A DNA stretch of 64,000 nucleotides from Zoogloea sp. GTDB taxonomy: Bacteria > Pseudomonadota > Gammaproteobacteria > Burkholderiales > Rhodocyclaceae. Below are positions 8,330 to 22,528 of the stretch, one piece after another. Under the pieces are notes generated by a model. The model saw only the letters and a program-made list of their open reading frames with translations. It ran no database searches and was not told the origin of the DNA. Position 1 is the first letter of the stretch. Each line of letters starts with the position of its first letter. The stretch spans positions 1,820,501 through 1,884,500 of the forward strand of contig JADJBR010000007.1 of NCBI GenBank assembly GCA_016703645.1, written 5' to 3'. A program made the translations under genes and the position numbers.

Positions 8330-8406
8330 GGTGATGTAGCTCAGACGGTTAGAGCGATGGATTCATAACCCATAGGTCGGCGGTTCGATTCCGCCCATCA
8401 CCACCA
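8330..8406 (+). tRNA. tRNA-Met (CAT anticodon)
   Basis: Full cloverleaf of 77 bases with encoded CCA. Acceptor GGTGATG pairs with CATCACC, the T arm is GGCGG/CCGCC around TTCGATT, and the anticodon loop is TTCATAA. An elongator tRNA-Met is most likely; a CAU-anticodon tRNA-Ile cannot be excluded by eye. It serves as the integration site of the following element. Confidence 0.95.
8362..8406 (+). repeat. Attachment site attL (tRNA 3' half)
   Basis: These 45 bases, from the anticodon loop to CCA, recur at 22441-22485 with one difference (T at 8389, C at 22468). This is the classical target of P4-like tyrosine integrases. Confidence 0.92.
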
Positions 8407-8421
8407 AAGAATCAAAGACTT

Positions 8422-8448
8422 AGCCCCGGATAACCTCCGGGGCTTTTT
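8422..8448 (+). terminator. Rho-independent terminator after tRNA-Met, inside the element
   Basis: AGCCCCGGA/TCCGGGGCT stem of 9 bp with a short loop, followed by TTTTTC. It lies 15 bases past the attL end, so the element supplies its own terminator for the reconstituted tRNA. Confidence 0.85.
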
Positions 8449-8459
8449 CTTTTCAGCGT

Positions 8460-8484
8460 TCCATGTAAGAACTTTGTAAGAGAA
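8460..8484. repeat. Element-end repeat, left copy
   Basis: A 25-base sequence identical to 22288-22312, in the same orientation. It contains TGTAAGA twice, spaced 11 bases apart. Likely an arm-type binding site for integrase or Xis. Confidence 0.7.
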
Positions 8485-8558
8485 TTTGGTCGATGCAATA
8501 CAACGTCGATCCACCTTTGGGATGCCCTTGGGACAAGGGATTGAGGCTTTTTGCCAAG

Positions 8559-9686
8559 TTACACCTTGCCGATTTTGAGCCCCGGCAACGCCTTCTCAAG
8601 CTGCTCGGCTACCCACTCAGCAAGCTCCTGATAGTTCATCGGCTCGGTCATCTTGATGCTGTCCTCCATATCGAGGCTGGCAGTGAAGTGTGGATCGTTG
8701 GCCGCTTCCCAATACTGCTCGCCCAGTTTTTCTTGAAGCTTCTCGAACAGTGGCAACGGCAGCGATGTGTCGTGCCGAATCATCATTTCCAGCTCCAGCC
8801 CCTCTGTCCAAGGTGACTGCCGAATCGTGGCTGATGTGGTGCCCGGCACCGTTTCTCCGAATAGGGAGCGATCCGGCAGGATGGTCAGACCCGCCTCACT
8901 GAACCGAAGCTTCTCCGGTGAGTCGAGTATTAGTCGCCAGTTGAAGTCCTGCAAGACTTCCTCCCGCAGCCGTTCCTCCAGGCCTGCCTTCAGCATGTTC
9001 CAGGCGATCAGCCGCATCCCCGGCCTATCGTCAGCCATACCCAGTCGTCCCCAAAACCACACGGTCACATCCACCGTCGCCATCGACTGATTTACCAAAG
9101 GGGCAATCTGACTGATGGCATCGACCAGCACCTTTTCCGATACGCGCCTGCCGATCACGCGCTTGCCGAAGTTCAGCACATGGACATCCGGCTTCACGGA
9201 ATCAACATGGCAACGTATTTGTAGCCAATGGAAGACGGCGATGCCCAGCCCCTTCACGCGATCCTTGAAATCACGCTCAAAGGTGGAGCGAGCAGCCCAG
9301 GCATGTAGGCTGGCCTGGTCGGTGACGCCAACCGACTCGAAGAAAACCATCAGCTTTCGCAGCAAGGCGATGCGCGTCCACATGAAATTGCCCCACAGGA
9401 ACTGGCTGGCGGCTTTGTTGCCTTCTTCATCGTTAGGGAATCGAGCCAGCACTGCCTTCAGGTCGTCTTGTGTGTAAATTTGATGCTGTTGCTGCACCTG
9501 ATCGCGGAAATAGCCTAGCGAGGACAGCACCACCTCCACGCGAACGTGAAAGTTGATGACGGTTTCCATCAAGTCGAGCATGTAATCGGCAGGGGCACGG
9601 TTCGGTTTCACGAAAGGCAGATCAGCAACGGCGTTTGCCAGTACCGAGAAGTCTTCGGGCGACAGTTCGTTCTTTTTCATTTTCAA
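8559..9686 (-). CDS. Protein with HhH-glycosylase-like region, element cargo
   Basis: A 375-residue soluble protein of unknown function, last gene of the leftward element operon. Residues about 130-220 recall the helix-hairpin-helix DNA glycosylase (HhH-GPD) fold. There is a GLGIAVFHWLQIRC segment, then DSVKPDVHVLNFGKRV, where the KPDxHV pattern matches the catalytic-aspartate region, and later a VDVTVWFWGRLG end resembling the iron-free C-terminal helix of that family. The N-terminal third is helical and charged; the C-terminal third is acidic and ends LPGLKIGKV. No signal peptide or membrane segment is seen. The glycosylase link is pattern-based inference. Start MKMKKNELSPED is preceded by a modest purine-rich site. 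Confidence 0.7.
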   Translation of the reverse strand: MKMKKNELSPEDFSVLANAVADLPFVKPNRAPADYMLDLMETVINFHVRVEVVLSSLGYFRDQVQQQHQIYTQDDLKAVLARFPNDEEGNKAASQFLWGNFMWTRIALLRKLMVFFESVGVTDQASLHAWAARSTFERDFKDRVKGLGIAVFHWLQIRCHVDSVKPDVHVLNFGKRVIGRRVSEKVLVDAISQIAPLVNQSMATVDVTVWFWGRLGMADDRPGMRLIAWNMLKAGLEERLREEVLQDFNWRLILDSPEKLRFSEAGLTILPDRSLFGETVPGTTSATIRQSPWTEGLELEMMIRHDTSLPLPLFEKLQEKLGEQYWEAANDPHFTASLDMEDSIKMTEPMNYQELAEWVAEQLEKALPGLKIGKV

Positions 9687-9755
9687 GGGTCCAGAAGTGA
9701 GAACGGCCAGCGCGATGGCTGGCCGGTGTTCCTGGATTTGGTTTGATTGCTTGAG

Positions 9756-10382
9756 TCAGTCAATGTCGAGGTCCATTTCCTCGATGCTTGGCAGTAGGCA
9801 CACCGCATCGGAAAGATGCACCTTCGCTCGACCTGCCGGGGTGTCGTAGTTGTGCCAGCCCCGGCGACTGGGATTGAGGGATAACGTGGCGTTCCACGGC
9901 ATCATCGAGAACGGCGGGAAATTCGGATCGAGCAGCAATAGCTTCTCGTCTTCCGGGAAGCCTTCCTGACCACCGATGCCGACCGCCAGGCTCCAGTGAT
10001 CGAAGCTGTCGTTTTGAACACCGACAATCGCTAATCCATCGGCGTGAAGGGTTTGCCGAATCTCATCGGGTAAATCCTTGAGGACGACCCGGCTGCTGAC
10101 GGCATGGTGATACGGTTTAAAAAACGATGCCAGCTTGTTCGGCTTGGTGCCGACGAAGTAATGCGGTCTGGCCGATTTCCAGAATGCTGACAAAGCCTTC
10201 TTCGGCTTGCCTTCCAGGTCGTCACGAGTGACTTCGCCAAACAGCATCAGCGCCATCAGTGCTGAATGCTGACCACAAGCGCCGTCGAGGTCGGACTGTT
10301 GCAGGTGTAGGGGTGACTTGCCTACCATCGGGCCGTCGATCCCTGCGCTGAGTCTGGGATGCCAGCGATACACGTGGCTCAT
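9756..10382 (-). CDS. C39-like cysteine peptidase, element cargo
   Basis: Predicted 208-residue papain-like protein. The order of motifs fits peptidase C39: glutamine and cysteine in LQQSDLDGACGQHSALMAL (about residues 40-58), histidine in SFDHWSLAVGIGG, and the aspartate in LLLLDPNFPP. Start MSHVYRWHPRLS at 10382 is chosen because GGAG lies nine bases before it; a longer form from 10424 is possible. It has no signal peptide, transporter domain or nearby bacteriocin precursor, so a role in leader-peptide export is unlikely. It lies between a Gp157-like gene and the HhH-like gene in one leftward operon. Substrate unknown. Confidence 0.65.
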   Translation of the reverse strand: MSHVYRWHPRLSAGIDGPMVGKSPLHLQQSDLDGACGQHSALMALMLFGEVTRDDLEGKPKKALSAFWKSARPHYFVGTKPNKLASFFKPYHHAVSSRVVLKDLPDEIRQTLHADGLAIVGVQNDSFDHWSLAVGIGGQEGFPEDEKLLLLDPNFPPFSMMPWNATLSLNPSRRGWHNYDTPAGRAKVHLSDAVCLLPSIEEMDLDID

Positions 10383-10459
10383 TTGAGTTTTCTCCAGGCA
10401 ATAGGAGGCCCCGGCACTGTTCATCAGCGCCGAAGCTCTCCGTCAGTTGGGATTCAGGC

Positions 10460-10960
10460 TCAGGAAATTTTCAGGCGTTTGCCTTTTTCCAGATGGCAGC
10501 CGGGAATGATTTCGCCGTCGTCGAGCATGGCCCGACGTAGGACATCCTTGCGGATCGTCACCACGGTTTCCTCTTCCTTGTAATCGTCAGGGATGGCATC
10601 TTCATCATCCAGAATGACCTTGGGTGGGTTGTCGCAAACCTTGACCACGAATTCCGGCGAAGCCAGTTCGTTGATGCCGGTGCGAATCATGTTCACCAGC
10701 AGGTAGTTGCGTAACCAGTCAGCCCGACCTTCCAGGTTTTTGCGACGAGCCACGATGCGCTTTTCGACGGTGCGAACCATCTCTGCCTCGCCCTCGAACT
10801 GCAACACCATTGCCGCCACGTTCCAACACTTGGTGTCCAACTCACCTGAATAGGCATCGAGGATTTCGTCGATGATTTCGTTCGGCATGTCCTGCTCATC
10901 CGACAGCACCCTGGCAAGCTCCAGGTACTCGTCGGCCAATGCGAATAGCGGCTTACTCAT
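10460..10960 (-). CDS. Siphovirus Gp157-like protein
   Basis: 166-residue protein of the phage Gp157 family. It starts MSKPLFALADEYLELARVL, has a long central coiled coil (EGEAEMVRTVEKRIVARRKN) and ends with the family tail (NPPKVILDDEDAIPDDY, then EIIPGCHLEKGKRLKIS). The start at 10960 is preceded by a very strong purine-rich site (AGGAGGGGGG). In phages, Gp157 genes sit beside single-strand annealing proteins, as here. Biochemical role not established. Confidence 0.85.
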   Translation of the reverse strand: MSKPLFALADEYLELARVLSDEQDMPNEIIDEILDAYSGELDTKCWNVAAMVLQFEGEAEMVRTVEKRIVARRKNLEGRADWLRNYLLVNMIRTGINELASPEFVVKVCDNPPKVILDDEDAIPDDYKEEETVVTIRKDVLRRAMLDDGEIIPGCHLEKGKRLKIS

Positions 10961-11034
10961 GGCTACCCCCCCTCCTGCTGGGCTTGGCCGTTGGCGAATG
11001 TTTTTTCGCCTTCCGACCAGATTTCTAGTCGCCG

Positions 11035-12006
11035 TCAGATCGAGGCACATTGCCCCTGTGTCAGTTGATCGAGCTTGGTGACGCTACCCCCCGTCGTCTT
11101 GAAGAGCCACGACAGCACTCGTTTTTCGGTGAAACCGTAATGACGAATTTCCTGGCGTAGGGTTTCAAGGGCTTCCTTGCCGATCTGCTCACCCGTTGCA
11201 TCGGTTGCAGAGTTTGCAGAAGTTGCACCCGATGCAGGCGTTGCAGACTTTGCTGATCGTCGTGGCTTGGGTGGCAACGATGCAACGGGAACCTCTTCCT
11301 TGACAACAGGACGATCCTCAATGTCCTGAGTGTAGATCTCAGAGAGGCCAGCCAATCGCAAAGTGGCGTCGATGTGGGCGCTCTTCTCGGCCATCTTCAG
11401 CGTCTTGTTGATGTCGCCGTAGTCCTGGCCGACGCTGCGAGCGCCAACCCCTTCGGCAACAGGGCGACCGTGAGCATCACGAAGTTCGCAGCGCAGCATC
11501 ACGGTGGTCAGCACTATGCCATTCAAGACGGCTTGCTCATAGTCGGGCAACGATGGGTAATGCACGGTCATACCCAACATGCCGGTGATTTTTTCAGCGC
11601 CGGGCTTGAACAGCGATGGCTTTGACCAGTGATGAGAATCGCCACAGTCCTTTACCCGGCCTTGGCGAGCAAACGGGCAGCGTTCCTTGCTGGCAACGTG
11701 GATTCTTCCGAAATCGACGCCATCAACCAATGCTGATCGCAGCCATTCCATCAGTAGCTCTCGGTTCGCTTTCCTGCGATCCAGCCCGGCTTTGAACTGC
11801 TCGGCTGGCAGGTCAAGGGGGGAAACAGTGATGGCGGTGTGCGGTATGGGCACTGGTTGCGGCAGTGGCTGCGCTTCGATCACGGCAGGAACACTGATCG
11901 GCGTCTCCTCGGCAATTCGACGGATGACACGACGGCCATTACGCAAAGCTTGTTGCGTGGTGGCGGCGAGTTCGTGGTTTTCCCGGATTTTGTCGGCGAG
12001 TCCCAT
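11035..12006 (-). CDS. Predicted phage/plasmid single-strand annealing-type protein
   Basis: 323-residue protein from MGLADKIRENHEL (12006). The core matches a widespread phage/plasmid family thought to act in recombination like RecT or Rad52: DGVDFGRIHVASKERCPFAR, a possible zinc cluster (CPF...KDC...SHHW), SLFKPGAEKITGMLGM, then the KMAEKSAHIDATLRLAGLSE block ending YTQDIED. The C-terminal segment is low-complexity (SATPASGATSANSAT) and carries a short helical tail. Just two bases separate its start from the upstream stop, so the two are coupled. Family recognition is by motif memory; annealing activity is inferred. Confidence 0.65.
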   Translation of the reverse strand: MGLADKIRENHELAATTQQALRNGRRVIRRIAEETPISVPAVIEAQPLPQPVPIPHTAITVSPLDLPAEQFKAGLDRRKANRELLMEWLRSALVDGVDFGRIHVASKERCPFARQGRVKDCGDSHHWSKPSLFKPGAEKITGMLGMTVHYPSLPDYEQAVLNGIVLTTVMLRCELRDAHGRPVAEGVGARSVGQDYGDINKTLKMAEKSAHIDATLRLAGLSEIYTQDIEDRPVVKEEVPVASLPPKPRRSAKSATPASGATSANSATDATGEQIGKEALETLRQEIRHYGFTEKRVLSWLFKTTGGSVTKLDQLTQGQCASI

Positions 12007-12008
12007 GG

Positions 12009-12326
12009 TCAATACTCCTCCGGCAATAGAACAGTGGTACTGCTGCGGTCGGCCTCCGTGATGATCCACAGCTTCTGATTGCCGATTTCGTAGGAGGACA
12101 GCAATCGGCTGCCGTAGTGCAAGGCTGCACGATTAGCCTCAATATCCTCAGGGTCGAGATCGCCCCAGTCGCCGGTATGGTGGCGATGCAGGAGCTCATA
12201 GGGCGTCAGGTCGTTTTCCTGCAGGAAGGCCATTGCGCCCGGCGTGGCGTAGATTTCGCCCACGTTGAACAAGGTTGGGCGTTGCCAGAGGGAAAAGCTG
12301 GTTGTGGCTGCGGTATTGGCAGTCAT
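12009..12326 (-). CDS. Conserved element-associated small protein
   Basis: 105-residue protein, first gene of the leftward operon. Sequence such as IYATPGAMAFLQENDLTPYE, HHTGDWGDLDPEDIEANRAA and a tail ITEADRSSTTVLLPEEY identifies a family common on plasmids and integrative elements, often loosely named restriction subunit M although it has no methyltransferase motif. Start MTANTAATTSF is chosen because GAGGAG lies nine bases upstream. Function unknown. Confidence 0.75.
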   Translation of the reverse strand: MTANTAATTSFSLWQRPTLFNVGEIYATPGAMAFLQENDLTPYELLHRHHTGDWGDLDPEDIEANRAALHYGSRLLSSYEIGNQKLWIITEADRSSTTVLLPEEY

Positions 12327-12843
12327 GGTAGGGTGCTCCTCGTGGTGAATACTCATCACACGGTTTGCGGGAGTCGGTCGCCAAACTCAGGCCCCTGCAA
12401 ACCACCAGCACATGCTGTCCCTGCCGACGAGCGACATACCGTAGAAGCGAAGGAATGCAAAACCAACTGACGTGACTTGGCCTGAGCGGTATTGCTCATG
12501 CTTGAAGTCGGTGAATTGGCTTTTTTTGGGGGGATGCCGACAGGTCGGCTAGGGACAGGAAGCGCCTTTGCAAAGGCGTCCGGTGACAGCGATGTGCGTT
12601 TTCAGCTTAGCGCCAATACACTTTGCTTGTCAACTTATCGTTAAATATCAATATCTTGGCGTGGTTTGATGCCTTCGACTGGCTACGGGACAGGCAAGAT
12701 ATGAACACATTCGCACTTGAACCTGCCTAGCTAAGCACTGCCCATGGCATAACTTCTCATGATAAAGTTTAAGATAAAAATGACACTCGCAGAAAAGTCC
12801 AGAAGGAAGCAACAGGACTTGTTATTTAACAAATGGAACTAAC
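12327..12843. other. Divergent intergenic region inside the element
   Basis: About 517 bases between the leftward recombination operon and the rightward protease. No convincing gene. It holds a perfect 16-base palindrome at 12563-12578 (CGCCTTTG/CAAAGGCG), an AT-rich zone at 12600-12660, and a TTGTTA/TAACAA inverted repeat at 12819-12832 just before the protease start. Confidence 0.6.
12604..12633 (-). promoter_or_regulatory. Possible promoter of the leftward recombination operon
   Basis: On the minus strand TTGACA (12628-12633) is followed after 18 bases by TAAGCT (12604-12609). The -35 is perfect and the -10 weak. It would leave a leader of about 270 bases containing the 16-base palindrome. 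Confidence 0.4.
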
Positions 12844-13689
12844 ATGAAAACAAAAACATCAATTCTGACGGCAGTTTTTGCGTTATTTGCTAGTTTCTCT
12901 GCGTTTGCAGCATCAACTGCTGAGCAAGTATTCAATAAAGCATCGCCATCAGTCGTGGTGATTATCGCCGTTGACCACACAAACAAGCCAATCGGATCAG
13001 GTAGCGGTGTTGTCATTGGTAAAAATCAGATAGTTACCAATTGGCATGTGGTATCTGGCGCAGACTCAATTATCGTTAGGCGAAAAGACACAAACTATCC
13101 GGCTGAAGTGATAGCTGATCGCCGTGATAGAGATTTAGCCCTTGTAAGCGCGAAGGGGTTAGAAGCTCCTGCCATAAATACAGCTACAACCAATAGTGTG
13201 TCTGTTGGACAGAATGTTTTTGCAATTGGAGCACCTTCGGGACTCGATTTAACAATTACTAATGGGATCGTTTCGGCTCTGCGTAACGTAGAGGATGGGA
13301 AGTTGATACAAACTTCTGCTGCAATATCACCTGGGTCTAGTGGAGGTGGATTGTTCAATGAAGACGGTCGCTTAATTGGAATTACAACATTAAAGCTGTC
13401 AGGAGATGCCCGCGAAGGCCTCGGATTTGCTATTTCTGCTGATTGGGTAAACCAAATCGCATCACCTGATGCAAAAAGTGGAAACTCGTTTTCCGATTGG
13501 GGTTGGTTAGTCGCAGTTTTTGTTATTCTGGTCATAATTGCCTTTGGGAAACGTATTTACTACAAATTGTGTGATGGAGGCCTTTTGAATCGGAATTCAT
13601 CCGAAAGCTCTCTGTCAGGCAACTACGAGTCTGTTGGCCGCAAATCAAGTGAAGTTAGAAACATCAAAAAGAATCAACGGTGCCGTTAG
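12844..13689 (+). CDS. Exported trypsin-like serine protease with C-terminal membrane anchor
   Basis: 281 residues as read. An N-terminal signal peptide (MKTKTSILTAVFALFASFSA) is followed by an HtrA-like S1C catalytic domain. The histidine is in TNWHVVSG, the aspartate in DRDLALVS and the serine in AISPGSSGGGLFN. No PDZ domain follows; instead a membrane segment (WGWLVAVFVILVIIAFG) and a short basic tail. Base composition is far lower in GC than the flanking chromosome. The tail after residue 265 looks unnatural, and the overlapping +1 frame continues with better protein-like sequence, so a frameshift near 13660 may truncate it. GGA lies six bases before ATG. Confidence 0.85.
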   Translation: MKTKTSILTAVFALFASFSAFAASTAEQVFNKASPSVVVIIAVDHTNKPIGSGSGVVIGKNQIVTNWHVVSGADSIIVRRKDTNYPAEVIADRRDRDLALVSAKGLEAPAINTATTNSVSVGQNVFAIGAPSGLDLTITNGIVSALRNVEDGKLIQTSAAISPGSSGGGLFNEDGRLIGITTLKLSGDAREGLGFAISADWVNQIASPDAKSGNSFSDWGWLVAVFVILVIIAFGKRIYYKLCDGGLLNRNSSESSLSGNYESVGRKSSEVRNIKKNQRCR

Positions 13690-15826
13690 AGTGTTTTTCG
13701 ATGGCAAAAAAGAAATTGATTCCGGAAATGTAGACCAAACAACTTACAAGAAGGCACAAAGTTTTTCAGATGGTGATCCTAAAAAACTAGAGGAAGTCTA
13801 TCTAAAGCTGCGAGCTAATGAGCTTTATGAAATAAAAAAACAAGTTGCCAACGTAAATTCGCCACAAGAAAACGATGCAACAGAACTGGCGGATACAGTT
13901 GCTTCATCAAAAAATCCATTATTCACTGAAACGCGCTTTGCGATATTTATTATTGCCCTTGTTTCGATAATTATTTTGCGTCAGCGCCATGGTTTTTTTG
14001 GGAAATATTTTGAGACAAATCTTCTGGCGGTTGTTGATAGCAAAAAAACAGCCAACGCAATTTCTGTTAATACAAAAGTAATCAGTTATGAACGTGGCTG
14101 GCTATCATCTAAATTCTCACTCGAACATCAATTTGGCGATACTGATTTCGCAATTAAATCAAAGAATTCACTTTCGCACATACCAACATGGTTTAATGGA
14201 TTTTCGTTGAATCTGAAATCCAGCTTAGTTTTGCCGGAAGATTCGGCATATTTTGACGCGAACCAAAGTGCCGTCACCTATTTTTATCCTTTAGGTGGAT
14301 TTAAAAGCAGTGCAGAATTTAGTGATATCGTTGCTAAGCCAGTTCCAGGTAGTAAAAATTCGTACATTTCTTTACGTGGACTTAAGTTCGATTTAGAGCG
14401 TGAAGCGACCTCATCGCCATTGGCTGTATCTGCAAAGCTTGCCGGATTCTCGTTGGAAGAAAAGAATAAAAAAGTAGGCATGTCAGATGTTGCGTTTTCG
14501 TTGGATAATCTCGGTATTCTCTACGGCACATTCTCTGCCAACGCAAAATCGAAATTTACTATTGGAAGTGCCCTTGTTGATGACTCTTCGGATGATACAC
14601 ATCTAAAAGTATCAGGGTTCGACGTTGGTGCACAACAAGTAGTGAGTGCCGGTTTAGTTGATTTTGATTATTCTATATCAATAACGGATATTTCATACAA
14701 AAATGAAAATGGCCTCCCTGTCCAAATAAAAAATATTGCAACAGGGGTTCAGCTTAAAAATTTTAACTCAATTGCGTTTGCAAACTTAGATAATGTATTT
14801 GGGGGCAAGAAAACCAGAACAAAAGGGGAGGCAGAGTTTGTAAAGATGATTCCGGTTTTATTAAGCAACTCCCCAACTCTGTTGCTTAAAGAGTCAGCTT
14901 TCACTATTAGTTCGGAAGATTTTTCAGGCTCTTTCGTTCTCAAAGCTGACGCATCTGTAGATGGTGCTGGCCTGACGCCAGAAACTTCCACGATTGATGA
15001 TTATATTAAGCGGACGAAATTTAATGCTTATTTTTCTGCAACCCCAAAGCTGCTAAATAAGTTTTTTGAAAATAGCGAACGTGCCACTCGTCAAGCAAAT
15101 GTCAAAAATCTAGTTGCTCAAGGACGTGTGTTTAGTCAGGACCAGATCAGTGCTTATCTTGCCGAATCCGCGACGGTTGCTAATCAACAAGTGGATGAGG
15201 TGTTGTCTAACAAAATAGCTATTCAAGAAGGCAGTTTTTTAAAAACCAAAATTTCATTCTCAAAAGGGGAATGGGCTATCAACGATGTCTCGGATAGCAA
15301 GGTGGTAAAAGATTTTATCGAGGGATTTAAAGAGGGTTCAACAGGCAGCAAGCCTCGAAACATGACGAATGCCAATGAGCAAACAAAGAGCCTTGATGGT
15401 CGATCCTATCAAGAACAAGTTTCACTTGTTAAGAATTTTGTAGCAAATAAACACGCACAACATACAAAATTCAATCCGGTTTTGTTTAACGATATTTCAA
15501 TTGCTAAAGCATATTTGCAGCGCAAAGGCGTTACACAATTACCAATTCCTGTCCTTGATAGTGTCAGAGATAAAGAAGTTTGGTGGGTCGATTCATCCGG
15601 TTTTCACATTTATTTGCCGAATGTTACCGGACAGACAATAGGCGGTCTTGCATACGAACTAGACCTTGGCGGGGATTGCCAAAACAGAGTAGGCCCATTT
15701 TTATATTCCCTGTTGGCATTTGACCCTGCAATTACATCCAATAGGTCAGGGGTAGTGACAATGCCCACCCCCAATAATTTGCCACGAGGAAAGGGAATGT
15801 GCGGAACAATTGTCTCTGTTTGGTAA
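13634..15826 (+). CDS. DUF945/YdgA-like membrane protein, overlapping the protease
   Basis: 730 residues from a TTG at 13634, which has no visible ribosome site. Residues 1-90 form a charged segment (GAVRVFFDGKKEID, EEVYLKLRANELYEIKKQ), then a membrane helix (FAIFIIALVSIIIL), then a large YdgA/DUF945-like body that begins YERGWLSSKFS. The body would be periplasmic. Because the first 90 residues lie in frame with no start signal, they may really be the C-terminus of the protease, with the DUF945 protein starting later or fused. AT-rich like the protease. Function of DUF945 proteins is not established. Confidence 0.7.
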   Translation: MAANQVKLETSKRINGAVRVFFDGKKEIDSGNVDQTTYKKAQSFSDGDPKKLEEVYLKLRANELYEIKKQVANVNSPQENDATELADTVASSKNPLFTETRFAIFIIALVSIIILRQRHGFFGKYFETNLLAVVDSKKTANAISVNTKVISYERGWLSSKFSLEHQFGDTDFAIKSKNSLSHIPTWFNGFSLNLKSSLVLPEDSAYFDANQSAVTYFYPLGGFKSSAEFSDIVAKPVPGSKNSYISLRGLKFDLEREATSSPLAVSAKLAGFSLEEKNKKVGMSDVAFSLDNLGILYGTFSANAKSKFTIGSALVDDSSDDTHLKVSGFDVGAQQVVSAGLVDFDYSISITDISYKNENGLPVQIKNIATGVQLKNFNSIAFANLDNVFGGKKTRTKGEAEFVKMIPVLLSNSPTLLLKESAFTISSEDFSGSFVLKADASVDGAGLTPETSTIDDYIKRTKFNAYFSATPKLLNKFFENSERATRQANVKNLVAQGRVFSQDQISAYLAESATVANQQVDEVLSNKIAIQEGSFLKTKISFSKGEWAINDVSDSKVVKDFIEGFKEGSTGSKPRNMTNANEQTKSLDGRSYQEQVSLVKNFVANKHAQHTKFNPVLFNDISIAKAYLQRKGVTQLPIPVLDSVRDKEVWWVDSSGFHIYLPNVTGQTIGGLAYELDLGGDCQNRVGPFLYSLLAFDPAITSNRSGVVTMPTPNNLPRGKGMCGTIVSVW

Positions 15827-15857
15827 GCAGTGCGCCGAAATATTTCGTTGCTGCTTA
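15824..15857 (+). terminator. Nested hairpin at the end of the DUF945-like gene
   Basis: Outer arms TAAGCAG/CTGCTTA (15824-15830, 15851-15857) enclose a perfect palindrome CGAAATATTTCG. It overlaps the stop codon. No T run follows, so termination is likely but not certain. Confidence 0.5.
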
Positions 15858-15939
15858 GTGGGGTATAAATCCCAATGGTTAGTATCCAGAAGGGCTGAAA
15901 ATGGAATTGTGCCTTTGCTGTTGCTACTTCTCTCTTCAA

Positions 15940-16517
15940 TCAGACTGAAGTGTCGCGGCTTACTTTAAGGTCATTTAGTAGCTGTAAAGCCTGTTCGCGT
16001 GATCCAAGATTAAATGCGTGAAAACCATTATTAAATTCTAACGTTAATTCATTTAGCAGTTTTTTGGTCACCTCTAATAATTTACCCAGTTCATTCGGTG
16101 CCATCCCCGCTTCGCTAAAAGCTTCTTCGGTAGTGTGTGCCTTTGAGCGATGACCAAACACTTTGTTTCTCAGAATATTAACCTTGATCCAGATTGGCTT
16201 GGCCTCATCCTTTAATGTGGTTTCAAGCTGACACAGCTTTCCTCTGATATTTGCGAATGTAACCTCATTAGCCTCAGCAGCGATGGGATGTTGAAAGTGT
16301 CATCACGTGTTTCGTATAGCCGATAAAGTTCAATTATTAGTGCAATAAAATGTGCATGGATTGCTGTTTGGAAATAAATTCCATATTTGTTCATCACGTC
16401 AACATATAAGGGGCGGGTATCCGCACTTCTATACACCCACCAAATATCATAGTTGAGACTCGCAACAGTTGTTGTATGGCGCAACTCATCTATATATTGC
16501 TCAGCCTTAGTGCTCAT
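15940..16517 (-). pseudogene. AbiU2-like HEPN protein, frameshifted
   Basis: Two pieces in different frames make one protein of about 190 residues. The N-terminal part (MSTKAEQYIDELRHTTTVAS, LNYDIWWVYRS) and C-terminal part (LETTLKDEAKPIWIKVNILR, NKVFGHRSKAHTTEEAF) are joined by a single frame change around 16270-16300. The join is marked by ANEVTFANIRGKLCQ. The motif RNKVFGH is the R-x5-H active site of HEPN RNases. Overall order matches the AbiU2 phage-resistance family. Whether the shift is real or a read error is open. The gene stands alone with no obvious nucleotidyltransferase partner. Confidence 0.65.
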
Positions 16518-16536
16518 TATTTATTACGTTAGTAAG

Positions 16537-16917
16537 CTAGTCTGTAGAATATGCTAACTGGCGTTGGTGCTTCAAAGCCAGCAGCACAACCTCAGTTTCA
16601 GAATGGGCATACAAAACGATGTACTGGCCGACAACGTACTCGCGTAGTGAAGGCAGGCCAGCTTGTTCGGCCAATTGCTGAACAGCGTTGGTTTTCAGCG
16701 TAGCCTGTGCAGATTTTGCAGACAGGAAACGTGCTGGCCGACCGCTGGCTGGCGACCAGGCCAGGATAGCGATCATTTCCCTGATGTCAGCCTTCAGCTT
16801 GGTTAAGCGAGTATCCGCGCTGTCTGCATCCTGGACCAGAAAGAACTGGTGAGCAGCATCGAGGTTGGCAAGGAAGTTCGGTGCGGCTTCGACCTTGGCG
16901 TTTAGGGGTAACGCCAT
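16537..16917 (-). CDS. RelE/ParE-family toxin
   Basis: 126 residues, with the family tail REYVVGQYIVLYAHSETEVV then LLALKHQRQLAY and an internal DIREMIAILAW. Such toxins act on ribosome-bound mRNA or gyrase. Longer than the usual 90-100 residues because of an N-terminal MALPLNAKVEAAPNF segment. The ATG overlaps the antitoxin stop (TAATG), indicating coupled translation. Confidence 0.85.
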   Translation of the reverse strand: MALPLNAKVEAAPNFLANLDAAHQFFLVQDADSADTRLTKLKADIREMIAILAWSPASGRPARFLSAKSAQATLKTNAVQQLAEQAGLPSLREYVVGQYIVLYAHSETEVVLLALKHQRQLAYSTD

Positions 16918-17192
16918 TAAGACAACGCCTTCATCAGGTCAGCGTTCGATACACGATGCCCGGCCAACACTTCACGCAGCCCTGCCTCAGCTTCCGTCAG
17001 CAGGACGAGACTGGCGTGCTCTTCTTCGAGCCGATGGTAGTAATCGAGTTTTTTGGCGTCCACAATCGCCACGTAAGCAACCCCGTTCTTGGTCAGCAGC
17101 TTTTCAGCGCCGGACACCACATCATCAGCCAACTCGGTCAGTCGAGCGCGAGCCTCGCTGATCGGCACCACATCTTGGGCGGTGAAGCTCAT
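16917..17192 (-). CDS. Phd/YefM-family antitoxin
   Basis: 91 residues. The N-terminal DNA-binding domain reads VVPISEARARLTELADDVVS followed by EKLLTKNGVAYVAIVDAKKL, typical of Phd/YefM antitoxins. The acidic C-terminus would bind the downstream toxin. It keeps the element or protects its own locus. Confidence 0.9.
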   Translation of the reverse strand: MSFTAQDVVPISEARARLTELADDVVSGAEKLLTKNGVAYVAIVDAKKLDYYHRLEEEHASLVLLTEAEAGLREVLAGHRVSNADLMKALS

Positions 17193-17211
17193 GGCAAAAT
17201 CCTTTAATGAA

Positions 17212-17223
17212 AACGTTAACGTT
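17212..17223. promoter_or_regulatory. Likely autoregulatory operator of the toxin-antitoxin pair
   Basis: Perfect 12-base palindrome AACGTTAACGTT, 20 bases before the antitoxin start. Phd-type antitoxins repress from such sites. Confidence 0.6.
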
Positions 17224-17258
17224 CAGTGTAGCAGATACCGATGGCGTTGCAGATGAAC

Positions 17259-18272
17259 TCAGCGATAAATTGCGCCCAGGGAGGCAAACTGCTTCGGGTA
17301 GCCGGTCTTCAACTTGCTCGGCTGAATACGGTTTGCCAAAGTCACAGCGGTATTCACCTGTGAGTGCGGCCAAGCAATGTCCAATCCGTGGGGCAGAAAA
17401 ACTTTGCGATAACGGTTAAACGTCAGCCTCGGCCAGTGATCCTGAATGATCGTGCCTGATGCCCACGCACTGTAGATCGCCTTGTTTTGCTGGCTAAGTG
17501 TTGCCAATACCGATGCAGGTAGCCCCGCAACAAGGTTCAGGTGTGACAGGCCAAGCTGCTGAAGGCGATCAGATAACTCCTGACGAACCACCGATAACGA
17601 CCAATCATTGCTGTTGGCCTTCCCCATCCTCCGCAACTCTTTGCCGCGATAAACACGTTCATAGCGCAACAAATTTTGGGCGAACTGAAGCAACTGACGC
17701 CAGTAGGAAGGCTTACCTTTGATGGGCTTGCGAATCATCTCCAGGTGCTTGTTGTAAAACTTGTCGGCGGCTCCATCCTGCTGTTTGCCAACGTAGATGG
17801 TTTCGATGCCGGTCAACTCCTCATGAACGGTAACGGCAAAGCCGTCGATCAACAGGCGTTCACGAATGTGTTGCAGGGTCTCCACTACTTCAGCCTGAGA
17901 GGAAAGGGGGAATGCGCCGTTTATATCGAGGCGCTCAAGTTCAAACCCCTGCTGCATGTAAAACTGTCGATCAGCCTTGGTGAAGGGCACATCGAATTTT
18001 TGATGAACGAAGGGCATTAGGCCAACCATCAAGGCTGTAGCGTTATTGGTCCCGACCAAGTTGTGCCCCTTGAGCAGGGACATTGGCGAAACGGGACCTG
18101 TCCTCATCGTACCGGCAGCAACATCGAATGTTGCTTTGAAGCCGCCATATGGGGTCTGGACCCTTGCCCAGAATTCCTTGCCCTTAGCTTTCGCGTTGCT
18201 GGCCTTAGCCGCAGTGACTGCTTGCAGGAGAGTAGGGCGCATCTGGATGATGCCGTCAGTGGTATCAATCAT
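17259..18272 (-). CDS. Phage/plasmid replication initiator, II/X family
   Basis: 337 residues from MIDTTDGIIQMRPT (GAGGA nine bases before the ATG; an upstream ATG at 18293 is less likely). Motifs fit the gpII/gpX family of filamentous phages and related plasmids: LLKGHNLVGTNNATAL, ELERLDINGAFPLSSQ and FYNKHLEMIRKP, then the basic LLRYERVYRGKELRR. These proteins nick one strand to start rolling-circle replication. A strongly folded DNA segment directly upstream is a natural origin. Its presence suggests that the excised element can replicate. Confidence 0.8.
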   Translation of the reverse strand: MIDTTDGIIQMRPTLLQAVTAAKASNAKAKGKEFWARVQTPYGGFKATFDVAAGTMRTGPVSPMSLLKGHNLVGTNNATALMVGLMPFVHQKFDVPFTKADRQFYMQQGFELERLDINGAFPLSSQAEVVETLQHIRERLLIDGFAVTVHEELTGIETIYVGKQQDGAADKFYNKHLEMIRKPIKGKPSYWRQLLQFAQNLLRYERVYRGKELRRMGKANSNDWSLSVVRQELSDRLQQLGLSHLNLVAGLPASVLATLSQQNKAIYSAWASGTIIQDHWPRLTFNRYRKVFLPHGLDIAWPHSQVNTAVTLANRIQPSKLKTGYPKQFASLGAIYR

Positions 18273-18294
18273 TGTTGTATTCCTCATCTGCATT

Positions 18295-18361
18295 CGTACT
18301 CAAAACCGATCTGGCTATCGGTTATTGAACATTAATAGTCTTGTTCAATTTGTTGAGTACG
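18295..18361. other. Three-way-junction DNA beside the replication initiator
   Basis: Outer arms CGTACTCAA (18295-18303) and TTGAGTACG (18353-18361) pair perfectly. Between them lie two perfect hairpins that abut without gaps: AACCGAT/ATCGGTT (18304-18323) and ATTGAAC/GTTCAAT (18324-18349). Candidate origin of rolling-circle replication. Confidence 0.75.
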
Positions 18362-18419
18362 CTGCGTATTACCGTGTTTCGTACCGGCGCTTATCTGGCT
18401 TGGCGTATTGGTGATTACT

Positions 18420-18459
18420 GCTTGGCACTGCATCAGTTGCAGCCGATACAGTGCCAAGC
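18420..18459. other. Long hairpin between initiator and DUF927 gene
   Basis: GCTTGGCACTG (18420-18430) and CAGTGCCAAGC (18449-18459) pair over 11 bp around an 18-base loop. A TTTTC follows on the plus strand, but no plus-strand gene precedes it. On the strand of the element genes there is no U tract, so a replication or packaging role is as likely as termination. Confidence 0.6.
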
Positions 18460-18465
18460 TTTTCA

Positions 18466-20253
18466 TTACACCGTGGTCAAAATGAGGGAGTTGATGACGT
18501 AGAAGCTTTGCTTGCCGTTCTTCGATCCAGGCATGGTGACCTGCCTCGTCGGAGTGCCCCGGGCTCCAAGCATCAACAGATTGCGGGATTTCAGTGCAGG
18601 GATCACGGCTGACTTTCCATGCTGTAGGCAAAGTTGCTGCTGAAAAGCCTGTTGGGTAAGTAAGAATGCCGTCACACCATCGACGGTGTGAGTGAACCCG
18701 ATTGGCTGGCCCTTCGCTGAACGGTGTTCTCCAAGGGGGATGAACGATGCCAGATGATCGGTGATGTAACCCTTCACTGCCGCGAAAACAGGATCACGTG
18801 TAGCCGCCTCCGCTTCGTATTGACGATTCCATGCTTTGAAGCAGGTACGAGCAGCGCGGATCGCGACACCATTCTTGAAAGGCAAGATTCCGATTTCAAT
18901 CGCAAGCTCCCCAGCGTAAGCAACGGTCGCCAAACGCCGGGCAACGTCAAGCTGAAGTCCTGCCTCATGCAGGTCGGCACAGCTACTCATCAAGGTATCT
19001 TGAATTTTCTCGATACGCGCAGCCGCGGACTGTTCGATTTCCTCCTGATGATCCACGAGATGCTGAATAAACGCAGGCCCTGCCGTGCCGTAATACTTCT
19101 GGGCATTCATTGCCATAGCTCCAGCCAAGGCAGCATGGTTTTTATAGCCATGAACATTCTCGAAGACGCCATGGGATGAGAAGGGGATCGAGAGCATCCG
19201 GGCCAACTGACCAGCAGATGCCATTAATCCATGCTTGGCGAGATAGGCAGCGAAACTCTGTTCACCTGTCGAGATTGTTACTAACCGAAACCTATAGACT
19301 GGCTGGATTTTGCTATCTGAATTCAGCCTGGATTTTGAAGAGCCGTTCATCAAGTCATAGGCAGCCTCACCCGCATCATTGGCTTTGGCTTGCGACAACT
19401 CATCAAGCGGGAAAACCAAGTCGTTCCTCTCGACTGCAGATTGCAGAAGAGCGTTTGCAGTAGCTTTCCAACTGCCCATGATTTCCTCGTCGCCGAAGAC
19501 AGAACAAATGGCGGCAAGGGTGGCCGTTTTTCCGGAGCGCGAAGCTCCGTGCAAAAGAATACCGATGTTAGGCTGCTTCACTAAACCCAGCAGTGGTCCG
19601 GCAAAGGCAGCGGAGAGCAGCAATAGCTGACGTGAGTTGCCAGCGAAGAACTTGGCGACAAACTGCTTCCACTCCTCCAGCGTTCCCTGCTTTTTGAACG
19701 GTGCGGTTCCGTAGAAATACACCGCAGGCTTTTCGCCCCTCGGGGCCAGAATTTGGTTTCCATAGATGAAAACCTTTTTCCCACTCTCACCATTGCGATG
19801 CCAGCCGGGCTTTTCTACGCGCATGAGATTTTTCTGGGGGCTGCACCAAGTCAGCAACTCATCGAGGACGAGCAGCACGGTTTTCTTGGGGGAGAAATAC
19901 TCCCAGCCACAATTCAGAAGCCTTGCGATAAGGCTCTTGCTGTCTTTGCATTCAGCTTTTGGAACTTGAAGCTCGTGCCATGCGCCCCGGTCATCCTTGA
20001 ATTTGAGCAAAACCAACACCTTCGGTTCGGTCTCTCCGCGAATATAAGCATCCGCTTTGATAGGGAGACAGACCTTGGTCAGGTTGCCATGTTCCTCCTC
20101 AAGCTCCAGGAAGTCTTTTTTGAGCTTGATGGTTCCAAGCGAGCTCTGACGTGACGGTTTTTCTTGAGGGTGCTTGGGGTTGGCTGCGCCGCTTTCACCA
20201 TCCGTGACCAAACATGAGCCGTTACCTGTGCGGAGATTTTCAGTGGTAAGCAT
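18466..20253 (-). CDS. DUF927-family replication ATPase
   Basis: 595 residues. The DUF927 core is clear: EYFSPKKTVLLVLDELLTWC, GWHRNGESGKKVFIYGNQI, the Walker A loop LLHGASRSGKTATLAAICSV, a Walker B-like LVFPLDELSQ and SRLNSDSKIQPVYRFRLVTI with STGEQSF. Such proteins are helicase-like ATPases, often fused or linked to primases, in phages and integrative elements. The first 40 residues are low-complexity. The start overlaps the stop of the upstream Xis-like gene by one base (TAATG). Likely works with the II/X initiator. Confidence 0.9.
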   Translation of the reverse strand: MLTTENLRTGNGSCLVTDGESGAANPKHPQEKPSRQSSLGTIKLKKDFLELEEEHGNLTKVCLPIKADAYIRGETEPKVLVLLKFKDDRGAWHELQVPKAECKDSKSLIARLLNCGWEYFSPKKTVLLVLDELLTWCSPQKNLMRVEKPGWHRNGESGKKVFIYGNQILAPRGEKPAVYFYGTAPFKKQGTLEEWKQFVAKFFAGNSRQLLLLSAAFAGPLLGLVKQPNIGILLHGASRSGKTATLAAICSVFGDEEIMGSWKATANALLQSAVERNDLVFPLDELSQAKANDAGEAAYDLMNGSSKSRLNSDSKIQPVYRFRLVTISTGEQSFAAYLAKHGLMASAGQLARMLSIPFSSHGVFENVHGYKNHAALAGAMAMNAQKYYGTAGPAFIQHLVDHQEEIEQSAAARIEKIQDTLMSSCADLHEAGLQLDVARRLATVAYAGELAIEIGILPFKNGVAIRAARTCFKAWNRQYEAEAATRDPVFAAVKGYITDHLASFIPLGEHRSAKGQPIGFTHTVDGVTAFLLTQQAFQQQLCLQHGKSAVIPALKSRNLLMLGARGTPTRQVTMPGSKNGKQSFYVINSLILTTV

Positions 20254-20528
20254 TACAGTTCCTCCCCGTTCAACAGGCGAACCACGTCATTTGCGGGCCA
20301 AGCCAGACGCCGGTTGGGAAGCTTGAAGGGCTTAAGTCCCATATAGTGCCCACTACGGGATAATGCCGAACGAATGCTGGCGGGCTCAACATGAAAGACT
20401 TGGGCTAAGTCTTCGGTTGAGAAAATCCTGCCCGGCGTCGGGTTAGGCGGAGGAACTTGGTGGAGGGTAGTGATGGGCTCAATAGCATTAAAGCTAATGC
20501 CAGAGCCTTGAGAGAATGGGTAGTCCAT
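20253..20528 (-). CDS. AlpA/Xis-like DNA-binding protein
   Basis: 91 residues from MDYPFSQGS, with AAGGA eight bases before the ATG at 20528. The helix-turn-helix region reads RIFSTEDLAQVFHVEPASIR and then GLKPFKLPNRRLAWPANDVV, close to the winged-helix fold of excisionases. Likely recombination directionality factor or regulator of the element. First gene of the operon that continues with the DUF927 ATPase. Confidence 0.7.
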   Translation of the reverse strand: MDYPFSQGSGISFNAIEPITTLHQVPPPNPTPGRIFSTEDLAQVFHVEPASIRSALSRSGHYMGLKPFKLPNRRLAWPANDVVRLLNGEEL

Positions 20529-20784
20529 TATCGAAGTCCTTAAGAAATTGAAAGATTTCGATCCCGTTTGAATATGGACTGCTGGGCGCACGAACCCCGG
20601 TTGATACATCCTTGCGGATGAAAACTTCGCAACTGCTCATCAAAGCATTAGCGATGCTTTCTACAACCTAGAACTGCGCCCGAACTGCTTCGGGATCTTG
20701 CTTTACAACTCAAGGACCACGGGGAAATTCCCATAGGGTCCAGATAAGGACGCCGGTTAGACGTTTGTTTTAGTTATGGAACGC
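20529..20784 (-). ncRNA. Long structured leader of the Xis-DUF927 operon
   Basis: About 250 transcribed but untranslated bases. Hairpins in RNA order: GGGAA/TTCCC near 20730, CCCGA/TCGGG at 20679-20694, AAAGCAT/ATGCTTT at 20642-20660, and CATCC/GGATG near 20610. No long open frame. It could be a regulatory leader or a site for an antisense RNA. Confidence 0.5.
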
Positions 20785-20813
20785 ATAATCCAACGTTAAT
20801 CAATCGTTGTCAA
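20785..20813 (-). promoter_or_regulatory. Promoter of the Xis-DUF927 operon with internal operator
   Basis: TTGACA (20808-20813) and GATTAT (20785-20790) are 17 bases apart on the minus strand. Between them lies an inverted repeat CAACG/CGTTG (20791-20795, 20805-20809), well placed for a repressor. Confidence 0.65.
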
Positions 20814-20874
20814 CTATTTGATTCGACATTGTTTTTTTCCGCTGCCGGACGGGAGAGGGATTGGCGGCGATTGA

Positions 20875-20897
20875 GGTAGATCGACGTAGATCGACGT
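20875..20897. repeat. Short tandem repeat after the integrase gene
   Basis: GTAGATCGAC occurs twice in tandem and the unit is partly repeated again, three bases beyond the integrase stop. Confidence 0.6.
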
Positions 20898-20899
20898 GG

Positions 20900-22274
20900 C
20901 TATTTTAAATTTGAAAATTTCAGGCCAGCTTGTTCGAGCATCCATGCCTCGATCTTCGTATGCCATACTCGCAGGAGATCAATAGGGCGAACCCGATAGT
21001 GTTTTTCGGCGGTGGCACTGGGCTTGTGACCTTGAATTTGAGCGACAACTCCTGCTGGGCACTCCACCCATTCGGCTAGTGTGCCGAAGCTGCGCCGCAG
21101 ACCATGTATCGAAAGCGCGGGGAGGCCGGCCTCGGTCAGGAGCCTTGTTGTGCTGGATTCTAGGTTCTTGCAGGCGGCCAGTCTTTGATGTCTTACTGCT
21201 AAATACCCACGGAGAAGGAGTCCAGTCGTCTGGCTTCTCGCTATCACTTTTCCGTTTGCTGGAAGGTGGTGTTTCATTTTTTGCTTTGAGAATCGCAAGC
21301 AGGCTGGCGACGTAGGTGTCAGGGGATGGTCCTTTGTCCCTCAACTTTGTCGCGGATAGTCAACGTATTCCATTTGAAATCGACATCTTCCCATCGAAGA
21401 CTGGCGATCTCCTCTCGCCGTGCCCCCGTTAAAAGAGTGACTTGAAGGTATGCGGCGATGCCTGGGTTACTAATTCGTTTAACTGAAGCGAACCACGCCC
21501 GAAGCTGTTCCCGCTGCAGGCAGTCGTCTTTTGCCCGTTTTTTTGGAAGGGTTTCCTTTGTTACCCGTGGGGTGCAGGCATCTAAATGGACAGAATCACG
21601 GAGTTGAGGTTGGTCACCGCACCAGTTCAAGAATGCGCGAAGTAGGCCAAAAGCAAGTCTGGCATGAGTTGGGCGTCGAGTACTTTCCTCTGTTAGCCAC
21701 AAACGCACTTTTTCAGTATCAATTTCAGGCAACGGCAAAGACAGAAGGGGGATAAGAATTCCCGGTTGGGTAATATCGCTTTCCCCGCTGCGACGACCTC
21801 TGGTACGTTTTTCACCTCCTGGCTTACTGACGGTATTGTGGTCGGCCAGATGGGATTTGCTCCAGCGAGCTTGGCGTTGCTGTATGTAGTCGTGCCATGC
21901 AGTCAGTGCGGGTACGATTTGTTTTTGGGCTTCATGTTCTTCGGCAATGCGCCGTGCCTCAGTCTCGGCCAGTTGATCTGCCTTTGCATGGCGTGGGTCT
22001 ATGCCCTGGTCAATCATTCCCTGAAGTCTTCTGGCTTCTGCCTGGGGCTTAGTCAATGCTCCAGGCTTTGCAGTCACCAATCGTGAGGCGGAAATTTTTG
22101 GTGCCGAGAGTGCTTTGGAAAATATATGCTTTTGATCCAGACGGCGAACGTTTTCCCGGTGGTGTGGCGCGAACAGCTAATCCTGGGGCCTCGCTGTCCC
22201 GAGAAAGGCTTGAGCCTTGTCTAGGGGCACTGGAATTCACGTATCCGGCCTGCGGTGAGTTTGATACGAGCCAC
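20900..22274 (-). CDS. Tyrosine integrase of the element, frameshifted
   Basis: P4-type site-specific recombinase of about 450 residues when frames are joined. A GTG at 22274 gives ARIKLTAGRIREFQCP, then DSEAPGLAVRATP and SKAYIFQSTL, which are typical of the N-terminal arm-binding domain. The catalytic arginine is in LTGARREEIASLRW, HxxR in IHGLRRSFGTLA, and the tyrosine in KPSATAEKHYRVRP. Frame changes occur near 22215-22190, 22055, 21335 and 21150. If real they would lock the element in place; if sequencing errors it is functional. It lies against attR with its 3' end inwards. Confidence 0.9.
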
Positions 22275-22287
22275 GGCTACCCTTATT

Positions 22288-22312
22288 TCCATGTAAGAAC
22301 TTTGTAAGAGAA
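22288..22312. repeat. Element-end repeat, right copy
   Basis: Exact 25-base match to 8460-8484, same orientation, 13 bases upstream of the integrase start codon and about 130 bases inside attR. Contains two TGTAAGA units. Confidence 0.7.
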
Positions 22313-22440
22313 ATTTTAGGGTGTCGTTCGATGGGAATCAAATAGTGAACGTTGTGCGCTGATTGATGTAGTTGATTTATATGGATAAAATATCTTGCAT
22401 ACAGCCTCAGTCAATCTGGCTCAATGTCGATTTTTTCGGT

Positions 22441-22485
22441 TTCATAACCCATAGGTCGGCGGTTCGACTCCGCCCATCACCACCA
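22441..22485 (+). repeat. Attachment site attR
   Basis: Second copy of the 45-base tRNA-Met 3' half, with one T-to-C difference in the T loop. It lacks the tRNA 5' half, so it is not a gene. Confidence 0.92.
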
Positions 22486-22498
22486 CCCGATTCAAGCA

Positions 22499-22528
22499 AA
22501 ACGGCCAATCCGAAAGGGTTGGCCGTTT
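22499..22528 (+). terminator. Original terminator of tRNA-Met, displaced by the element
   Basis: AAACGGCCAA/TTGGCCGTTT stem of 10 bp followed by GTTT, 14 bases past attR. The spacing matches that of a tRNA terminator before insertion. Confidence 0.75.

What the first reader, a model, noticed from the sequence alone, without database searches (positions are those of the whole stretch)
18295..18459. Perfect three-way-junction DNA plus an 11-bp hairpin next to a II/X replication initiator
Within 165 bases there are four perfect stems. A 9-bp outer stem (18295-18303 with 18353-18361) encloses two hairpins of 7 bp each that abut the outer stem and each other with no gap. A separate 11-bp hairpin lies at 18420-18459. 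The segment sits between the initiator start and the DUF927 gene. Rolling-circle origins often have such folds beside the rep gene. That the excised element replicates from here is inference, but the fold itself is read directly.
Basis: partly seen in the sequence, partly recalled or inferred. Interest (0 to 1): 0.8.

Follow-up and report, generated by a model that had tools for sequence, protein, structure and literature searches.

The report
Likely rolling-circle origin in genomic island
A strikingly perfect folded DNA element beside a phage-type replication gene in a tRNA-inserted bacterial genomic island is probably the place where that gene's protein would cut the DNA to copy the island as a rolling circle; this is predicted from sequence and has not been tested.

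Summary
The fold is real and not chance: it is the only such three-way junction in the 64-kb window, and the only other copy in 523,791 bases of fetched loci is in the one close relative. Corrections: the second hairpin is 8 bp, and three unpaired bases separate it from the outer stem. I compared origins of other II/X-type initiators. They often carry, on the rep-sense strand, a nick hairpin abutted by a second hairpin (18 of 39 loci; 0.32 expected by shuffling), as in M13 and IKe. The island's only match to this signature, on either strand, is the junction's two inner hairpins, in the right order and strand, 78 nt upstream of rep. I read the junction as the double-strand origin clamped by an extra outer stem. 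Against this: the signature was framed after seeing the data; the relative changes the base before the predicted nick; a simpler nick-hairpin rule finds nothing here; a distant DUF927–Rep element lacks the junction; and covariation cannot be tested, since the stems are identical in the only close relative. Island ends are confirmed by empty sites. Nick position and replication are untested.

The parts
18295..18361 (-). Three-way junction: outer 9-bp stem enclosing H2 and H1; read as the predicted double-strand origin (rep-sense strand)
18324..18349 (-). H2, 8 bp, loop AGACTATTAA on the minus strand: predicted nick hairpin, candidate nick between 18334 and 18333
   Evidence: Signature match; but the base 5' of the candidate nick (18334) differs in L002
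18304..18323 (-). H1, 7 bp, loop 6: second hairpin abutting H2, counterpart of the second stem-loop of M13 and IKe origins
18366..18372 (-). GTAATAC heptamer at the foot of the junction: alternative nick site; the only GT[AG]ATAC on the minus strand of the island (two on the plus strand)
   Evidence: the heptamer is in 18 of 19 nick hairpins of II/X replicons. Not in a canonical hairpin here, and its 12-mer is not among the ten best in the island
18420..18459 (-). H0, 11-bp hairpin directly after the DUF927 stop; possible complementary-strand (single-strand) origin
   Evidence: partly retained in L002; not terminator-like; L003 has a 13-pair hairpin at the like place
17259..18293 (-). II/X (Phage_CRI, gpII-like) replication initiator; likely true start ATG at 18272 after an AGGA motif
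   Evidence: PF05144 1e-14, TIGR01629 4.1e-9, phrog_702; start choice is my reading
18466..20253 (-). DUF927 protein, primase/helicase-like
   Evidence: PF06048 1.8e-50; phrog_1139 DNA primase and phrog_8841 primase/helicase; weak partial match to a cassette replicative helicase, far below its cut-off
20253..20609 (-). 118-aa protein, no family match; sits where L002 and L078 have AlpA-type regulators
20900..22240 (-). Tyrosine integrase gene, reading frame broken into three frames
   Evidence: PF00589; frames
16537..17192 (-). Phd/YefM antitoxin and ParE-type toxin
8359..8406 (+). attL: 3' part of the intact tRNA-Met(CAT) gene 8330-8406
22438..22485 (+). attR: 48-nt copy of the tRNA 3' end, 96% identical
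   Evidence: empty sites
8407..22485 (.). The genomic island (14,079 bp)
   Evidence: In relatives L110 and L111 the match to the sequence ending at 8406 is followed directly by the match to that starting at 22486

Best explanation
The junction is the double-strand (leading-strand) origin of an integrative element that copies its excised circle by rolling-circle replication with an M13-gpII-like initiator. Mechanism, inferred: the initiator binds the two abutting inner hairpins (H2, H1), which extrude from supercoiled DNA; it nicks the rep-sense strand in or beside this structure (best guess in the H2 loop, CTATT|AAT, 18334/18333; alternative GT|AATAC at 18371/18370). The 3' end is extended while DUF927, a primase/helicase-like protein, and a host helicase help unwinding or lagging-strand start. 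The outer 9-bp stem, found in no compared origin except that of L002, clamps the two hairpins into one folded unit. H0 would help start the complementary strand. Shown: the fold, its uniqueness, the protein families, the gene order, the island ends, and the match to the II/X origin signature. Inferred: binding, nick, replication, and the roles of DUF927, the outer stem and H0.
For: Signature (nick hairpin >=6 bp with T|RA near the loop's 3' end plus abutting second hairpin) on the rep-sense strand: 18 of 39 II/X loci against 0.32 expected and 5 of 39 antisense; one hit in the whole island on both strands = H2+H1; 2 of 3000 shuffles of the 194-nt intergenic region. Simpler nick-hairpin rule in other replicons: 14 of 17, 0.43 expected, 1 of 17 antisense. 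Six later-fetched replicons, some closely related to earlier ones: 3 of 6 sense, 0 of 6 antisense. IKe's annotated viral-strand origin is two abutting stem-loops upstream of gene II, with minus-strand-origin loops further upstream. M13's published nick lies in the loop of the same kind of hairpin. L078, with the same DUF927-Rep order, has its only nick hairpin of >=6 bp in the same intergenic slot, and that site has the top motif score in its element. The junction has 1 change in 67 nt against L002, while third codon positions of rep and DUF927 differ at 204 of 932. DUF927 is primase/helicase-like. By eye the initiator has RxD, TxYxG, YxKxxE and LxRxE (sequence), the motifs that a review gives for Rep_trans and says have likenesses in Phage_CRI proteins (PMC5714925 passage).
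Against: The signature was framed after looking at these sequences, the window's own fold included. 21 of 39 loci lack it, among them I2-2, L004 and L081, and 3 of 6 later ones lack it, If1 included. Under the simpler nick-hairpin rule the island has three 6-bp hits, none of them in this intergenic region. L002 has C where the base before the predicted nick should be T, so it fails the signature. In the M13 record the published cut falls one base later than my T|AA placement. L078 lacks the junction. The alternative heptamer is not among the ten best-scoring sites of the island, and a profile of known origins gave no hit in this region at E up to 100. The alignment of the window's intergenic DNA with L078's was not robust: L002 gave 884 of 2000 shuffles as good. 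Conservation of the 67 nt is matched by 335 of 3623 equal windows. The integrase frame is broken.
Confidence: 0.58

Rival explanations
1. Control element of the rep gene: the junction acts as an RNA leader or as a protein-bound operator that sets the amount of initiator, and replication starts elsewhere or not at all.
For: It ends about 10 nt before a ribosome-binding motif; it also folds well as RNA on the rep-sense strand (z -4.3, 0 of 200 shuffles). Perfect Watson-Crick stems cannot tell DNA from RNA.
Against: The likely ribosome site lies outside the stems in the predicted fold. The simple scan found no sigma-70-type promoter or terminator-like site in 18250-18500, and in 14000-24000 the only Rfam matches up to E 1 are the tRNA-end copy (as a tmRNA fragment) and a hit at E 0.77 elsewhere. 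It does not explain the two-hairpin match to other II/X origins.
Confidence: 0.2
2. Transfer origin: the initiator works as a non-canonical relaxase on this structure when the island is mobilised by a helper conjugative element.
For: RCR-type initiators serve as putative relaxases in streptococcal IMEs, and MobT proteins do both jobs (PMC5704250 passages). No relaxase family was hit among the island ORFs that I scanned, which are not all of them.
Against: I recall no such role for II/X initiators; no coupling protein or helper was looked for.
Confidence: 0.1
3. A leftover of a small palindromic insertion, without present function.
For: The integrase frame is broken; L078 lacks the junction; 335 of 3623 equal stretches are as well conserved.
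Against: All stem bases of the junction are unchanged in L002 although third codon positions differ at 204 of 932; no second copy in 523,791 bases of loci apart from L002; position and order match II/X origins.
Confidence: 0.12

Closest known systems
Viral-strand (plus) origin of Ff and IKe filamentous phages (M13, IKe)
   Same: II/X-type initiator gene just downstream on the same strand; two abutting stem-loops; TTTAATA near the 3' end of the first loop, compared with CTATTAAT here; in IKe further hairpins upstream after the preceding gene
   Different: Here both hairpins are enclosed in an extra 9-bp stem, and sequence likeness is not significant (M13 115-207 of 1000 shuffles as good, IKe 139 of 1000 at best); the carrier is an integrase island with no coat or export genes recognised in the ORFs scanned
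Small II/X rolling-circle plasmids (pXV64, pMM1, pTA144 and others)
   Same: Initiator family; nick hairpin on the rep-sense strand, in many followed at once by a second hairpin (pXV64 and pMM1 yes, pTA144 no)
   Different: Their nick hairpins hold the heptamer GT[AG]ATAC; here it stands outside a canonical hairpin
Mobilisable genomic islands with a small regulator, DUF927 and xis/rdf (MGIVflInd1, MGIVchHai6)
   Same: Integrated island with a small regulator beside a DUF927 gene (PMC4958241 and PMC7449626 passages)
   Different: No II/X initiator is mentioned in the passages I saw; common ancestry with this island was not tested
IMEs and ICEs that carry rolling-circle initiators (MobT/Rep_trans, Rep_2, PHA00330 types)
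   Same: Integrative element with its own rolling-circle-type initiator, some with a toxin-antitoxin pair (PMC5704250 passages)
   Different: Different initiator family; the counted cases in the passages are from Streptococcus

Membership tests
II/X (Phage_CRI, gpII-like) initiator | Match to the family models above cut-off | tested here: met
   PF05144 55.2 bits (cut-off 21.7), TIGR01629 35.9 (cut-off 29)
II/X (Phage_CRI, gpII-like) initiator | Active-site motifs RxD and YxKxxE | tested here: met
   By eye: R114-L-D116 and Y173-N-K-x-x-E178, invariant in window, L002 and L003; motifs as given for Rep_trans, with similar ones in M13 and Cri proteins (PMC5714925 passage)
II/X (Phage_CRI, gpII-like) initiator | Fold | tested here: inconclusive
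   Model of the initiator is poor, pLDDT 39.9
II/X-type double-strand origin | Nick hairpin with T|RA near the loop's 3' end, rep-sense strand, upstream of rep | tested here: met
   H2; but the stricter [GT]T[AG]ATA rule is not met, and L002 fails at the base before the nick
II/X-type double-strand origin | Second hairpin abutting the nick hairpin | tested here: met
   H1, gap 0
II/X-type double-strand origin | Heptamer GT[AG]ATAC inside the nick hairpin | tested here: not met
   Heptamer present at 18372-18366 but outside a canonical hairpin; M13 also lacks it
II/X-type double-strand origin | Nicked by the cognate initiator | not testable with these tools
   Needs protein and DNA
Integrative element (genomic island) | Direct-repeat ends at a tRNA gene, with an empty site in relatives | tested here: met
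   48-nt repeat; two empty sites
Integrative element (genomic island) | Intact integrase | tested here: not met
   Gene runs over three frames; decay or assembly error not separable here
Mobilisable genomic island (IME) | oriT or relaxase used by a helper | not tested
   No relaxase model was hit among the ORFs scanned, but not all ORFs were scanned and no oriT search was made

The most novel reading that the evidence does not exclude
A so far undescribed family of proteobacterial integrative elements (integrase, regulator, DUF927, origin, II/X initiator, variable toxin-antitoxin or defence-like cargo) replicates, and perhaps transfers, as a rolling circle from a filamentous-phage-type origin, and one lineage has clamped the two origin hairpins into a single three-way junction that the initiator reads as a unit.
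Probability: 0.33. Interest if true: 0.65.

Novelty: new variant of a known kind. Interest (0 to 1): 0.45.

Why it matters
If true, filamentous-phage-type replication has been captured by integrase islands and joined to a DUF927 primase/helicase-like protein. DUF927 genes are described as ubiquitous in MGIVchHai6-like mobilisable islands, where the gene was dispensable for mobilisation and the role of its counterpart in MGIVflInd1 is called elusive (PMC7449626 passages); a DUF927–Rep–origin module would suggest a testable role in copying the excised circle. It would also suggest that origins of this initiator family can be recognised by shape more than by letters, which helps to find origins of diverged members.

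Tried and rejected
DNA homology between the intergenic regions of the window and L078: first looked good (score 36, 1 of 500 shuffles) but dropped. With 2000 shuffles the first scoring gave 4, three others 16 to 58; L002 gave 446 to 884; and four tiles elsewhere in the window's island outscore the intergenic region against L078's gap.

Heptamer GTAATAC at 18372 as the sure nick site: kept only as an alternative. Likeness of the plus strand (TTAATAG...TCTTGTT) to M13 and IKe: not significant (121 and 139 of 1000 shuffles). An M13-like stretch at 20.6-20.9 kb: chance (5 of 30 shuffled islands as good). Terminator reading of H0: no run of T after it in L002, and no terminator-like site found. Conservation as proof: 335 of 3623 windows are as good. 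Fragment of tmRNA at 22429: it is the tRNA-Met copy.

Searches that brought little: viral contigs with Rep, DUF927 and the Rep alignment, no relative; outer-stem pattern in viral contigs, 12 stretches, about what I roughly expect by chance, none matching Rep or DUF927 in the DNA held; exact foot-of-junction pattern, 0; intergenic DNA in plasmids and phages, 0. Genome searches for Rep hit 4 of 149, 6 of 369, 13 of 395, 9 of 399, 5 of 378 and 1 of 28 genomes (groups overlap, own genome counted in the first five). Among the loci that I checked for both proteins, only the window, L002 (the same contig as G570's L064) and G018 (L003, L021, L066, L078) have DUF927 next to Rep; of the 20 DUF927 loci kept, only the window's own and G018's also match Rep. 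The model of the initiator was too poor to use.

Full report
What is there. On the minus strand of a 14,079-bp island inserted in a tRNA-Met gene the order is: broken tyrosine integrase (22240-20900), a 118-aa protein, DUF927 (20253-18466), the folded intergenic region, the II/X-type initiator (18293 or 18272 to 17259), and a Phd/ParE pair. The island ends are a 48-nt repeat of the tRNA 3' end, 8359-8406 and 22438-22485. In two relatives, L110 and L111, the left flank with the tRNA (96% and 91% identical) runs straight into the 43 nt that follow 22485 in the window, so the empty site is seen.

The fold. Outer stem 18295-18303/18353-18361 (9 bp), H1 (7 bp), H2 (8 bp) and a separate hairpin H0 at 18420-18459 are present. 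The fold is far from chance (z -6.6 and -6.2, 0 of 200 shuffles each). It is the only such junction in 64 kb, with one more in 523,791 bases of other loci, in the relative L002 at the homologous place. Hairpin pairs without the outer stem and without a motif are commoner: 7 in the window, 46 in 511,464 bases.

The close relative. L002 (JAKOTN010000114.1, a metagenome-assembled genome) shares 3.7 kb at 89% identity covering DUF927, the intergenic region, the initiator and the toxin pair. In the 67 nt of the junction one base differs, in the H2 loop, and every stem base is unchanged. That is strong against the 204 of 932 third codon positions that differ, but 335 of 3623 windows of equal length are as well kept, so it is not proof. 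Because nothing in the stems varies, covariation cannot be tested. In H0, 3 of 40 bases differ: one improves a pair, one gives a wobble and one breaks a pair (pairing worked out by hand).

Origins of the same initiator family. I took 15 plasmid records from the lists (53 and 44 records, overlapping) and parts of M13 and I2-2. In 14 of these 17 a rep-sense hairpin of at least 6 bp carries [GT]T[AG]ATA near the 3' side of its loop, against 0.43 expected from shuffles and 1 of 17 on the other strand. M13's published nick falls in this loop (PMC11765958 passage); on the fetched record the given coordinates put it one base after TTT|A, and the passage prints the site a little differently. Under a wider rule, with four genome loci added because they had already shown the hairpin (L006, L008, L072, L078), 19 of 21 have it, and 18 of those 19 use the heptamer GT[AG]ATAC, M13 being the exception. 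A second hairpin often follows at once. Some diverged members keep the two-hairpin shape but change the loop (L074, L075, L076, L087). As a rule, nick hairpin with T|RA plus abutting second hairpin, it is met by 18 of 39 loci (the 17 and 22 genome loci), 0.32 expected, 5 of 39 antisense. One of the 18, L092, matches at a hairpin other than its nick hairpin. Most loci were read for up to 900 nt upstream of rep; L006 and L008 were scanned whole, because rep lies at a contig end, and L072 over 1500 nt. Of six further replicons read afterwards, some closely related to earlier ones, 3 meet the rule, none antisense; L114, L115 and If1 do not. Two stretches fetched with them (L117, L118) do not hold the origin and were not counted. 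One of the three is IKe, whose record annotates these two stem-loops as the viral-strand origin.

The window by that rule. In the whole island, both strands, there is one match: H2 followed by H1, gap 0, on the rep-sense strand, 78 nt upstream of the initiator's ATG; 2 of 3000 shuffles of the 194-nt region have one. The rule was made after seeing the data, including the window's own fold, so these numbers overstate the case. By the simpler rule nothing is found in this region, and the island's three 6-bp hits lie elsewhere (13305 and 22263 on plus, 15280 on minus). L002 fails the two-hairpin rule because the base before the predicted nick is C. On the plus strand the same loop reads TTAATAG in the window and TTGATAG in L002, which fits T|RATAG, but with one exception (M13, a second site) the nick hairpins are on the rep strand, and the likeness to M13 and IKe is not significant. 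A second candidate is GTAATAC at 18372-18366, at the foot of the junction, unchanged in L002 and the only such heptamer on the minus strand of the island; yet it is not in a canonical hairpin and is not among the ten best-scoring sites of the island, and a profile of known origins does not find the region at E up to 100. So I place the origin at 18290-18380 and leave the nick open.

The distant element. It lacks the junction, but its only nick hairpin of at least 6 bp lies in the DUF927–Rep gap on the rep strand, and that site has the best motif score in the element. This supports the slot as the origin and shows the junction is not needed in every member. It has no abutting second hairpin by the rule. 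An apparent DNA alignment between the two gaps did not stand up.

Reading. The junction is most likely the double-strand origin, with the family's two hairpins enclosed in an extra stem. DUF927 is primase/helicase-like, and DUF927 beside a small regulator is known from mobilisable islands where its role is unclear (PMC7449626 passages). RCR initiators in integrative elements are known, but in the passages I read they are of other families (PMC5704250; PMC5714925). In nine paper searches (listings, plus passages of six papers) I saw no report of a II/X initiator with DUF927 in an integrative element; the library lacks most subscription papers.

Noticed in passing
window 20900-22240: The integrase gene is spread over three reading frames: decay or assembly error.
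   Followed up: partly
window 8459-8487 and 22287-22315: 29-nt direct repeats (97%) just inside both island ends; possible integrase arm sites.
   Followed up: no
L112 (G004), around 469-1570: Same tRNA 3' end followed by the same flank, with an integrase-like stretch (64% DNA identity over 667 nt) beside it and no intact tRNA in the stretch: probably the end of another island at this tRNA.
   Followed up: partly
window 12844-15826: Trypsin-like protease (Pfam Trypsin_2; PADLOC RT-Protease_XI protease part) overlapping a 730-aa DUF945 protein, possible cargo.
   Followed up: no
window 16212-16517: 101-aa protein matching the N-terminal part of HEPN_AbiU2.
   Followed up: no
window 10460-11050: Siphovirus Gp157 family protein, suggesting phage-derived DNA in the left half of the island.
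   Followed up: no
L059, L060, L055, L119: Plasmid pMM1 and a Klebsiella plasmid share with M13 the hairpin CTAAATCGG...CCGATTTAG; IKe has a like loop annotated as minus-strand origin.
   Followed up: no
L074, L075, L076, L086, L087: Diverged II/X initiators with two-hairpin structures upstream whose loops carry GTAAC, GTAAA, ATAAC or GTAA instead of GT[AG]ATAC.
   Followed up: partly
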